DNA of 23,033 nucleotides from a virus. The stretch's first letter is position 1; each line of letters opens with the position of its first letter. The stretch lies in the IMG/VR virus record IMGVR_UViG_3300029787_005428, positions 334 to 23,366 of that record. One strand, 5' to 3'. A program made the position numbers and the translations under genes. Below are positions 20,067 through 22,473 of the stretch, in pieces. The notes beneath the pieces are model-generated. The model was not told where the DNA came from, made no database searches, and saw nothing but the letters and a program-made list of their open reading frames with translations.

Positions 20067-20855
20067 ATGTTAGTATCTCATGAAAGTCCTATTAGTATCT
20101 TAGAAGAATCAAAAGATTATAATGATTATGATTATGCCTTAGTTCATCTGTTTGAAACTCATCCTGAATATTATGAATTTTTTAAAAATTCTTTACGTAA
20201 TGGTAGAGAAGTATTATTAGATAATAGTATATTTGAATTAGGTGAAGCTTTTGATTCTGATAAATTTGCTAAATATGTAGAAGAATTAAAACCGTCTTAT
20301 TATATTGTACCGGATGTCTTAGAGGACGGTTACCAAACTATGTTGAATTATAACGAGTTTGTTAAGAAGTATCCTGATCTACCTGGATTGCGTATTGGAG
20401 TTGTACAAGGTAAAACTTATGATGAGTTAGTAGATTGTTATAGATATATGTCTGAGCAATCTGATTATATTGCAATTAGTTTTGATTATAGTTATTATGT
20501 AGCGACCGGTAGAGGTAAGACAGAATTAGAAAGATGGTGTACCGGTCGTCAAAAATTTATTAGAGATCTTAAAAATGAAGGTATATGGGATTTTAATAAA
20601 CCTCATCACTTACTGGGTTGTTCTTTAGCTAAAGAATTTAAAGCTTATACTAATGATTATTCTATAAGATCTGTAGATACATCTAATCCGGTAGTTGCTG
20701 GTATAAAGGAACTCCGATATACTGGTGATATGGGATTAAAAGATAAGCCTTCTGTTAAGTTAGCTGATCTTATTGATACTAAGGTTGATGATGATATGAT
20801 GGAATGTATCGAATATAATACAGGTTGTTTTAGGAGTATAGTATATGGTAATTAG
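20067..20855 (+). CDS. TGT-superfamily (DpdA-like) guanine transglycosylase
   Basis: 262 residues. Correspondence with tRNA-guanine transglycosylase core motifs: LLDNSIFEL (D52, like the DSGGF base), VPDVLED (D83), GVVQGKTYDEL (Q114), LLGCS (G184) and SVDTSNP (D204, like the FDCVLPTR nucleophile). The catalytic aspartate pair is therefore kept. Unlike cellular TGT (about 375 residues) it lacks the CxCxxC zinc site, and its size and motif style match phage DpdA enzymes, which insert 7-deazaguanines into DNA. It overlaps the kinase-like gene by 11 nt, and the third gene is QueF, which makes the preQ1 substrate. It could instead modify the tRNA-Asn downstream. Confidence 0.75.
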   Translation: MLVSHESPISILEESKDYNDYDYALVHLFETHPEYYEFFKNSLRNGREVLLDNSIFELGEAFDSDKFAKYVEELKPSYYIVPDVLEDGYQTMLNYNEFVKKYPDLPGLRIGVVQGKTYDELVDCYRYMSEQSDYIAISFDYSYYVATGRGKTELERWCTGRQKFIRDLKNEGIWDFNKPHHLLGCSLAKEFKAYTNDYSIRSVDTSNPVVAGIKELRYTGDMGLKDKPSVKLADLIDTKVDDDMMECIEYNTGCFRSIVYGN

Positions 20856-21399
20856 TTTTACAGGAGCGCAGAGTACGGGTAAGTCTACTTTACTAGAAGA
20901 GTGTAAAAAGGATGGTAGATTTAATGGATTTACTTTTCAACATGAAGTAACTCGTTGGGTAAAGAAAAAGTATAATCTAACTATTAATGAAGATGGTGAC
21001 GAATTAACTCAATTAGCTATATTAGCTAAGCATTTAGATAACTATCTAATTTATAGAGATAAAGATGTAGTTATGGATAGATGTATATTAGATGGTTTAG
21101 TTTATACAACGTACTTATATGCTGGTCCTAATCAAGTGGTAAGTGAAGAATTATATAACTATACTGAATTTCTATTTAAAAAGTTAATTGATAAAATAGA
21201 TATTATTTTTTATGCTGAGCCTGAAATACCTTTAGTAGATGATGGTGAAAGAAGTGTTAATACAGAATTTAGAGACGGTATAGTTAAATTATTTGAGGAA
21301 GCTATAGATCATTTTAAGATACCTGTTGTAAGATTAGCTGGTAGTAAGAAAGAACGTATGACAACAATATATAAAACTTTAGATAATTATGGCAAATAA
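20845..21399 (+). CDS. P-loop kinase, NadR/AAA_28-like
   Basis: 184 residues. Walker A GAQSTGKST (7-15) sits right at the start; DRCILDGLVYT (78-88) resembles the Walker B/substrate DR region, and DDGERSVNTEFRD (132-144) resembles the lid of NadR-type nucleoside kinases. The family (AAA_28) includes ribosylnicotinamide kinase and phage relatives of unknown substrate. It overlaps the transglycosylase gene by 11 nt upstream and queF by 11 nt downstream, so the three are almost certainly co-expressed. A kinase acting on a 7-deazaguanine or nucleotide precursor is a possible role, but the substrate cannot be read from sequence. Confidence 0.7.
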   Translation: MVISFTGAQSTGKSTLLEECKKDGRFNGFTFQHEVTRWVKKKYNLTINEDGDELTQLAILAKHLDNYLIYRDKDVVMDRCILDGLVYTTYLYAGPNQVVSEELYNYTEFLFKKLIDKIDIIFYAEPEIPLVDDGERSVNTEFRDGIVKLFEEAIDHFKIPVVRLAGSKKERMTTIYKTLDNYGK

Positions 21400-22318
21400 A
21401 ACGTTAGATAACAGTAGAATTAGTAAGCACCTAGGGCAAACTTCTCAATATAAGAGTGAGTATGATTCTAGTTTATTAGTAAGAGAACCTCGAAGTAATA
21501 ATCGAGAATATTTGAATATATTTGATGATGATTTACCTTTCGTAGGTTCTGATACATGGAATGCATATGAATGTTCATTTCTTCTTGATAATGGAAGACC
21601 GGTAACAGGTGTAGTTAAATGTGTATATCCTTGTAGTAGTAGATATATAGTTGAAAGTAAGAGTATAAAACTATATTTTAATTCATATAATATGACAAAG
21701 ATGGCTGCGGATAAAGATGTAGCTATTAGTTCATTTGAAAAGACGGTAAGCAGGGACTTAAGTGAGTTGCTTGAAACTGATGTAATGGTAGCATTTCAAG
21801 ACGGTGCACGTGTTAATAAGAAATTTGATAGCCCTACTAATGAATGGGATATTGAAGACTATATTAATGTAGATTTACTTGATGACCATGAAGACTTTAT
21901 ATATACTCAATATACTGAAGACCCTAGCTTATTAGAAGGTATTACTCGAAAAAGAGAATTAGAGCAAAAGTTTTATTCTGGTCTGTTAAAGAGTAACTGT
22001 CGTGTTACTTCTCAGCCTGATTGGGGCGATGTATTTATCTATATTAAATCTAAAAATGCTATCGATGCGCATAGTATTAAAAATTATGTTGTATCATATA
22101 GAGATGAATGTCATTTTCATGAAGAGATATGTGAATGCTTCTATAAGAGATTAAAAGATGCATTTGATCCTTCTGAGCTATTAGTAATGTGCTTATATGC
22201 ACGTAGAGGTGGTATTGATATTAATCCTGTTAGAGCTTCAAGTCAAAAACTTATTGAAAAGTATGCTGGTAATTTAATTGATCCGTATGCAGTTCATATT
22301 AAAACTAGTAAACAATAA
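21389..22318 (+). CDS. queF: 7-cyano-7-deazaguanine reductase (long form)
   Basis: 309 residues, an NADPH-dependent preQ0-to-preQ1 reductase of the E. coli-like long (two-domain T-fold) type. LGQTSQYKSEYDSSLL at the N-terminus, VESKSIKLYFNSYN (88-101), KSNCRVTSQPDWGDV (201-215, with C204 as the thioimide-forming cysteine, like E. coli C190, and D211), FHEEICE (243-249, H244/E245) and RRGGIDINP (272-280) are all present. The enzyme looks complete. It supplies preQ1, the base that TGT-type enzymes insert. queC, queD, queE and folE are not in the window, so preQ0 must come from elsewhere in the phage or from the host. Confidence 0.93.
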   Translation: MANKTLDNSRISKHLGQTSQYKSEYDSSLLVREPRSNNREYLNIFDDDLPFVGSDTWNAYECSFLLDNGRPVTGVVKCVYPCSSRYIVESKSIKLYFNSYNMTKMAADKDVAISSFEKTVSRDLSELLETDVMVAFQDGARVNKKFDSPTNEWDIEDYINVDLLDDHEDFIYTQYTEDPSLLEGITRKRELEQKFYSGLLKSNCRVTSQPDWGDVFIYIKSKNAIDAHSIKNYVVSYRDECHFHEEICECFYKRLKDAFDPSELLVMCLYARRGGIDINPVRASSQKLIEKYAGNLIDPYAVHIKTSKQ

Positions 22319-22319
22319 T

Positions 22320-22394
22320 ATGGAAACCTTTCTGCTCTGGGGCATAGCATTATGTATGATATATTATGCATGGATGTCTGTTAATAATTTCTAA
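22320..22394 (+). CDS. 24-residue hydrophobic peptide
   Basis: Encodes 24 residues that start METFLLWGIALCMIYYAW and end MSVNNF: a single potential transmembrane helix. It starts 1 nt after the queF stop and ends 4 nt before the tRNA. No Shine-Dalgarno. Spacing in the run suggests it may be real, but such a short frame could also be chance. Confidence 0.35.
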   Translation: METFLLWGIALCMIYYAWMSVNNF

Positions 22395-22398
22395 TACT

Positions 22399-22473
22399 TG
22401 CGAAGTAGCTCAGCGGTAGAGCAGGTGACTGTTAATCACTTGGTCGCTGGTTCGAGCCCAGCCTTCGCAGCCA
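22399..22473 (+). tRNA. tRNA-Asn (anticodon GTT)
   Basis: A full cloverleaf is present. The acceptor stem TGCGAAG/CTTCGCA (22399-22405 with 22463-22469) is perfect; then come a D-arm GCTC..GAGC, an anticodon arm GGTGA/TCACT with loop CTGTTAA (anticodon GTT), a T-arm GCTGG/CCAGC with TTCGAGC, discriminator G and an encoded CCA (22471-22473). The loop contains U33-G34-U35, the recognition triplet for TGT. It is the last element of the plus-strand run containing the transglycosylase and queF. Confidence 0.95.

What the first reader, a model, noticed from the sequence alone, without database searches (positions are those of the whole stretch)
20067..22473. Phage 7-deazaguanine operon: DpdA-like transglycosylase, P-loop kinase and QueF, ending in tRNA-Asn
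Three overlapping genes (11-nt overlaps at both junctions) under one good promoter encode a TGT-family enzyme without the zinc site (D52/D204 kept), a NadR-like kinase and a complete QueF with C204. Phage DpdA enzymes are known to replace guanine in DNA by 7-deazaguanine bases, and QueF would supply preQ1, so the phage DNA may carry dPreQ1 or a derivative that blocks restriction. The kinase between them has no known place in such a pathway and may be a new component.
Basis: partly seen in the sequence, partly recalled or inferred. Interest (0 to 1): 0.8.

Follow-up and report, generated by a model that had tools for sequence, protein, structure and literature searches.

The report
Phage guanine-swap operon with partner kinase
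A marine T4-like phage carries a three-gene operon that very probably replaces guanine in its DNA by the modified base preQ1; the odd kinase in the middle is not a stray gene but a partner kept beside this type of base-swapping enzyme across many related phages, and its role is still unknown.

Summary
In detail: three (+) genes at 20067-20855, 20845-21399 and 21389-22318 overlap by 11 nt each; tRNA-Asn follows. ORF1 has no Pfam match, but its AlphaFold model matches tRNA-guanine transglycosylases best (E 1e-7) and the DNA preQ0 insertase DpdA. It is 51% and 47.5% identical to the DpdA-type proteins of Flavobacterium phage immuto and Campylobacter phage CP220; CP220 DNA has 100% of dG replaced by dADG (PMC8306585). 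ORF3 is a complete two-domain QueF. Close relatives encode QueD, QueE and QueC elsewhere.

ORF2 is a NadR/deoxynucleoside-kinase-like P-loop kinase. In 79 non-redundant loci of this DpdA type a relative lies within 2.3 kb in 55; of 44 loci that also have queF, 43 have a kinase. In phage CC_R7 a diverged pair sits at another locus as queC-dpdA-kinase-DNA polymerase. Phages with DpdA1 or DpdA2 lack it.

Best reading: a DpdA3-type module making preQ1-DNA, with the kinase serving a nucleos(t)ide step: either exchange on nucleotides before replication, or salvage of released guanine. Published work (recalled, not readable here) holds that exchange is post-replicative. The tRNA is not a conserved part. 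New variant of a known kind; the kinase is the interesting point.

The parts
20033..20060 (+). sigma-70-type promoter TTGATA-16-TATAAT, 6 nt before the first ATG (leaderless or near-leaderless mRNA)
   Evidence: 11 of 12 match; conserved in relatives: TATAAT perfect in 35 of 45 distinct upstream sequences, shuffles 3.7%
20067..20855 (+). DpdA3-type guanine transglycosylase (262 aa); D52, D83, Q114-G115, H181-LLGC and D204 conserved
   Evidence: 51% / 47.5% identity to immuto DpdA / CP220 gp056; AlphaFold pLDDT 92; Foldseek: TGT 1e-7, DpdA 7ui4 5e-6; conserved residues in a 28-sequence alignment
20845..21399 (+). AAA_28 / NadR-RNK / deoxynucleoside-kinase-like P-loop kinase (184 aa), conserved partner of DpdA3
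   Evidence: PF13521 54 bits; 24 of 24 relatives match; model pLDDT 92.6; Foldseek TMP kinase, dNK, NadR; synteny
21389..22318 (+). QueF, NADPH-dependent 7-cyano-7-deazaguanine reductase, two-domain type (309 aa)
   Evidence: PF14819 113 bits and PF14489 74 bits; TIGR03138 240 bits, below its cut-off of 293; 3bp1 E 1e-43
22399..22473 (+). tRNA-Asn(GTT); a neighbour, not a conserved part of the module
   Evidence: ARAGORN, Rfam 69.9 bits; absent in the nearest relative and most others
22486..22518 (.). terminator-like hairpin between the operon/tRNA and the convergent gp23-like capsid gene
   Evidence: 14-bp stem, terminator form read on the - strand; fold z -3.45

Best explanation
The operon is a DpdA3-type 7-deazaguanine DNA-modification module. 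The phage (QueD, QueE, QueC in relatives, with FolE from phage or host) makes preQ0; QueF (ORF3) reduces it to preQ1; the transglycosylase (ORF1) exchanges guanine for it, through covalent attack by D204 with D52 and D83 contacting the base. Phage DNA should carry dPreQ1, probably at high or complete substitution, which should block restriction. The kinase (ORF2) is a functional partner acting on a nucleoside or nucleotide of this exchange. My preferred (inferred) version is that the exchange acts at least partly on deoxyguanosine nucleos(t)ides and the kinase lifts the 7-deaza-dG product towards the triphosphate used by DNA polymerase. Shown here: fold, family, synteny, conservation, promoter. 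Inferred: the base, its level, restriction protection, the kinase substrate.
For: Fold: top PDB matches are TGTs, plus DNA preQ0 insertase DpdA 7ui4. Homology: immuto 'DNA guanine transglycosylase DpdA' 51%, CP220 47.5%; CP220 and CPt10 have 100% of dG as dADG (PMC8306585). QueF complete. Pathway genes in relatives: QueD, QueC, QueE, FolE in one. Module: dpdA and kinase occur in 80 of 80 close viral relatives and queF in 78, the other two running off the contig. Wider: kinase in 43 of 44 queF-bearing representatives, and with dpdA but no queF in 11 more incl. CP220. CC_R7 keeps a diverged dpdA-kinase pair at another locus, as queC-dpdA-kinase-DNA polymerase. CAjan, Dp-1 (DpdA1) and VH7D (DpdA2 cluster) have no comparable kinase. 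The kinase accompanies dADG, QueF-only and QueF+formyltransferase phages, so it should act on what these share (guanine/deoxyribose-phosphate side), not on the 7-substituent.
Against: No DNA from this phage was measured. phiST, with a distant DpdA of this superfamily, has no kinase in its 79-kb genome record. An 11-member DpdA3 subclade without queF has only a diverged kinase copy, beside the terminase gene where seen. From memory, Crippen 2019 found no dADG phosphates in infected cells and Cui 2023 argued for post-replicative insertion; both speak against the nucleotide-level version. Kinase substrate class (nucleoside or monophosphate) is not resolved by sequence or fold.
Confidence: 0.72

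Rival explanations
1. Exchange is post-replicative as in other Dpd systems. It releases guanine in stoichiometric amounts, which a phage xanthine/guanine phosphoribosyltransferase and this kinase recycle (guanine to GMP to GDP) into dGTP and into GTP, the FolE substrate, closing a guanine-to-preQ1 loop.
For: Phosphoribosyltransferase genes lie within the fetched locus in 31 of 56 representatives and in G001/G002; the G002 one is XGPRT-like (65.7 bits, below cut-off). Fits the published post-replicative view.
Against: The kinase is NadR/dNK-like, not guanylate-kinase-like. The phosphoribosyltransferase is no commoner beside kinase-bearing loci (18 of 36) than others (13 of 20). Host guanylate kinase should suffice.
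Confidence: 0.3
2. The kinase is an ordinary phage nucleotide-metabolism gene (dTMP/dNMP kinase, or ribosylnicotinamide kinase supplying NAD(P)H for QueF) that hitchhikes in the operon.
For: PHROG and GenBank name it thymidylate kinase; profile similarity to NadR ribosylnicotinamide kinase; L293 has dpdA-kinase followed by a nucleotidyltransferase resembling NMN adenylyltransferases; a paralogue sits beside dUTPase in firehammerviruses.
Against: Linkage to dpdA persists across lineages with different surroundings and with no QueF gene beside it (CP220, CC_R7, L219). In 50,697 phage records the non-Streptomyces hits are all in phages with this DpdA type.
Confidence: 0.2
3. The enzyme modifies tRNA (phage tRNA-Asn-GUU or host Q-tRNAs) rather than DNA.
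For: tRNA-Asn(GUU) is a queuosine-type tRNA and lies next to the operon; QueF makes preQ1, the substrate of bacterial TGT.
Against: The tRNA is missing in the nearest relative and most others. ORF1 has no zinc-site motif, no Pfam TGT match, and groups with proteins of phages whose DNA is modified.
Confidence: 0.05

Closest known systems
DpdA3 systems of Flavobacterium phage immuto (MW353176) and Campylobacter firehammerviruses (CP220)
   Same: Same transglycosylase family (51% and 47.5% identity), same kinase family near it (38% / 36%), 7-deazaguanine synthesis genes in the genome; immuto also has the same QueF (47%)
   Different: immuto has a formyltransferase-like gene (DpdN in Cui 2023, from memory) between dpdA and kinase, absent here; CP220 has no QueF hit and makes dADG. 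The window type predicts plain dPreQ1.
DpdA1 (phages CAjan, Dp-1) and DpdA2 (Vibrio phages nt-1, VH7D)
   Same: DNA guanine transglycosylases with FolE/QueDEC and, in Dp-1 and VH7D, QueF (PMC6884629)
   Different: No match to the ORF1 profile and no comparable kinase in these genomes; measured dPreQ1 in Dp-1 is about 1.7% of G (PMC6884629)
Halovirus HVTV-1 dPreQ1 DNA
   Same: Predicted same base; HVTV-1 has dPreQ1 at about 30% of G (PMC6884629)
   Different: Archaeal virus in which no viral DpdA was found in that paper
Nucleotide-level base replacement (PurZ / dZ phages)
   Same: Would work alike if the kinase feeds a modified dNTP to the polymerase
   Different: dZ is made on the nucleotide by PurZ without a transglycosylase (PMC12783734); only a functional analogy, untested

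Membership tests
TGT/DpdA superfamily | TGT-type TIM-barrel fold | tested here: met
   Foldseek best hits TGT, E 1.2e-7, and DpdA 7ui4, E 5e-6; pLDDT 92
TGT/DpdA superfamily | catalytic Asp pair (base contact and nucleophile) and the QG / LMG-like motifs in order | tested here: inconclusive
   D52 and D204 invariant in 28 relatives; hhalign to E. coli Tgt puts GVVQG on GIIQG, HLLGC on YLMGV and D204 on the FDC Asp, but with poor support (probability under 2%) and without covering D52
tRNA TGT | zinc-binding CxCxxC site | tested here: not met
   no such motif; no Pfam PF01702 match
DpdA3 | sequence kinship with CP220 / immuto transglycosylase | tested here: met
   47.5% and 51% identity over 98-99%; same PHROG 19058. 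The name DpdA3 and its link to full replacement are from memory of Cui 2023
DpdA3 | complete replacement of dG | not testable with these tools
   needs virion DNA
DpdA1/DpdA2 | detectable profile match | tested here: not met
   ORF1 profile finds nothing in CAjan, Dp-1, VH7D
QueF (two-domain, TIGR03138) | QueF_N + QueF domains, catalytic Cys/Asp, E[SL]K[SA] motif | tested here: met
   TIGR03138 score 240, below the curated 293
NadR / ribosylnicotinamide kinase | equivalog score TIGR01526 and fused NMN adenylyltransferase domain | tested here: not met
   26.8 bits versus cut-off 341; kinase part only
Thymidylate kinase | Pfam Thymidylate_kin match | tested here: not met
   only 1 of 24 relatives at E 0.006; not the window protein
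AAA_28 P-loop kinases | PF13521 above cut-off | tested here: met
   54 bits versus 27; 24 of 24 relatives match

The most novel reading that the evidence does not exclude
DpdA3 phages replace guanine before replication: the small transglycosylase swaps the base on free deoxyguanosine nucleos(t)ides, the partner kinase phosphorylates the 7-deaza-dG product, and the phage polymerase builds dG-free (here dPreQ1) DNA. That would explain complete substitution and overturn the view that all 7-deazaguanine DNA arises post-replicatively.
Probability: 0.33. Interest if true: 0.8.

Novelty: new variant of a known kind. Interest (0 to 1): 0.55.

Why it matters
Some phages replace every guanine in their genome, and how complete replacement is reached is unclear: a base exchange on finished DNA must be exhaustive, yet modified nucleotides were (from memory) not seen. 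A kinase kept beside the transglycosylase across many phage lineages gives a concrete gene to test. It also widens the DpdA3 family to an abundant group of uncultured marine T4-like phages predicted to carry dPreQ1; the one virus measured with mainly dPreQ1 (HVTV-1) resisted every restriction enzyme tried (PMC6884629).

Tried and rejected
(1) tRNA-Asn as part of the unit: rejected, rarely present in relatives. (2) dGTP-destroying partner: MazG not found in 8 relatives by PF03819; the HD protein upstream of dpdA in CP220 is an HD + AAA_33 protein, probably an RNA-repair polynucleotide kinase-phosphatase, also present in other Campylobacter phages that had no hit to ORF1. A PRA-PH/MazG-like gene does lie next to dpdA in immuto but not in the window clade. 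(3) Aminopropylation of preQ1 by a queE-speD-speD-speE cluster seen in G001/G002: rejected, because the spe genes are an optional cassette that also occurs without queE beside it and is missing from many queE loci. (4) Surface charge as an argument against DNA binding: ORF1 is acidic (net -16) but CP220 DpdA3 (-3) is like DpdA1/TGT; not decisive. (5) CC_R7 as a natural double loss of dpdA and kinase: wrong; a profile search found a diverged pair elsewhere. (6) Independent-contrast test of kinase with queF: too few supported pairs. (7) Full text of Cui 2023 and Crippen 2019: not held.

Full report
Where it is. The window is 23,033 of 23,366 bases of an IMG/VR virus fragment from a T4-like phage. 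The operon lies between (-) genes of 749 and 258 aa on one side and a convergent gp23-like capsid gene on the other. All three ORFs are as described, with 11-nt overlaps.

What the genes are. ORF1 has no Pfam family and only an uncharacterised PHROG (19058). Modelled with 28 relatives (alignment A2) it gives a confident model (pLDDT 92) whose best solved matches are tRNA-guanine transglycosylases, with the DNA preQ0 insertase DpdA (7ui4) also significant. D52, N53, P82-D83, R161, H181-LLG and D204-T-S are invariant. A profile alignment with E. coli Tgt puts the GVVQG, HLLGC and D204 motifs on the Tgt GIIQG, YLMGV and nucleophile-Asp motifs; its statistical support is poor, so the fold match carries the argument. 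There is no zinc motif. ORF3 is a full two-domain QueF. ORF2 is a P-loop kinase of the AAA_28 family, related to NadR ribosylnicotinamide kinase and to deoxynucleoside and thymidylate kinases.

Kinship. In annotated phages ORF1 is closest to the DpdA of Flavobacterium phage immuto (51%) and to hypothetical proteins of Campylobacter firehammerviruses (47-48%). CP220 and CPt10 DNA has 100% of dG replaced by dADG (Crippen 2019, as cited in PMC8306585). Hutinet 2019 placed the Campylobacter phages in its group without DpdA (PMC6884629). From memory, not verifiable here, Cui 2023 named this subfamily DpdA3, linked it to complete replacement, and described fdPreQ1 and the formyltransferase DpdN. DpdA1 and DpdA2 phages give no match to the ORF1 profile.

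The rest of the pathway. The nearest relative (L003/G001, 94% identical ORF1) and a 185-kb relative (L012/G002) encode QueD and QueC and QueE. FolE is found in another relative (G003) but not in these two. The clade of the window has no adjacent formyltransferase gene except in L082, so plain dPreQ1 is the predicted base.

The kinase as a partner. In 80 of 80 close viral relatives dpdA and the kinase occur, and queF in 78 (two run off the contig); only in L082 is dpdA apart, with formyltransferase-kinase-queF together 6.5-7.7 kb away. I then sampled distant relatives, 255 loci in all, and reduced those with enough flank to 79 representatives under 80% identity. Kinase-family gene within 2.3 kb: 55 of 79. 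With queF in the locus: kinase in 43 of 44, counting L082 and L183. Kinase without queF: 11 representatives incl. CP220, plus L219 with the kinase upstream. All 11 IMG/VR contigs above 110 kb that I searched have at least one member, though in the queF-less 11-member subclade it is a diverged copy beside the terminase gene. Among annotated phages, kinase hits outside Streptomyces phages fall only in phages with this DpdA type. In CC_R7 the usual firehammervirus site lacks the pair, but a diverged pair stands elsewhere as queC-dpdA-kinase-DNA polymerase. Controls with DpdA1 or a DpdA2 cluster (CAjan, Dp-1, VH7D) have no comparable kinase (VH7D one weak 19-bit match). These counts are not corrected for shared ancestry; the tree shows clustering, so the separate arrangements (CP220, immuto, L082, L219, CC_R7) are the better argument.

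Regulation. Transcription should start at or next to the ATG, so the first gene is probably read from a leaderless mRNA and the next two by overlap coupling (inference).

How it may work. Because the kinase accompanies dpdA whatever the 7-substituent (amide in CP220; QueF with or without formyltransferase elsewhere), it should act on the part they share. Two versions fit. (A) Exchange on nucleos(t)ides, kinase towards the dNTP, then polymerase: favoured by the kinase family, by complete substitution in CP220 and by the CC_R7 gene order. Against it stand the reported absence of dADG phosphates and the published post-replicative view (both from memory). (B) Post-replicative exchange with guanine salvage through an XGPRT-like enzyme and the kinase. 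I give A about 0.33 and B 0.3; the rest is split between a passenger kinase, other roles and tRNA modification.

Novelty. The transglycosylase and QueF are new members of known families. The dpdA3-kinase-queF arrangement without formyltransferase, and the constancy of the kinase, are not described in the papers I could read; Cui 2023, the most relevant one, could not be checked. Hence new variant of a known kind.

Noticed in passing
window 15366-15449 (-): Glutamine riboswitch (RF01739), 40.9 bits, just above the gathering score of 35, on the strand without an obvious downstream gene.
   Followed up: no
L112:1400-6085 (G001) and L103:3762-8446 (G002): queD-(orf)-phoH(-)-queE island in relatives, in some phages with an inserted speD-speD'-speE polyamine cassette before a conserved 218-aa gene.
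   Followed up: partly
L381:4747-9849 (CC_R7): queC-dpdA-kinase-DNA polymerase run with a strongly diverged, unannotated DpdA and a 'thymidylate kinase', near several transposase genes.
   Followed up: partly
L293:7908-10439: Longer DpdA (371 aa), abutting AAA_28 kinase, then a nucleotidyltransferase resembling NMN adenylyltransferases.
   Followed up: no
L245:9476-11003: Kinase followed closely by a T4 gp1-type dNMP kinase (DNMK, PF21448), compatible with a two-step phosphorylation chain.
   Followed up: no
L262, L259, L276-L292: DpdA3 subclade with a diverged QueC-like gene close behind dpdA and no queF; where seen, its kinase copy lies beside the terminase gene.
   Followed up: partly
G001:50307-51206 and G002:53553-54317: A second, longer paralogue of the kinase in the same phages, beside glycosyltransferase-like genes.
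   Followed up: no
window 2078-3606 (-): Two adjacent genes that read like the two halves of an HldE-type kinase/adenylyltransferase, plus a cupin, suggesting phage-made sugar chemistry; not scanned further.
   Followed up: no
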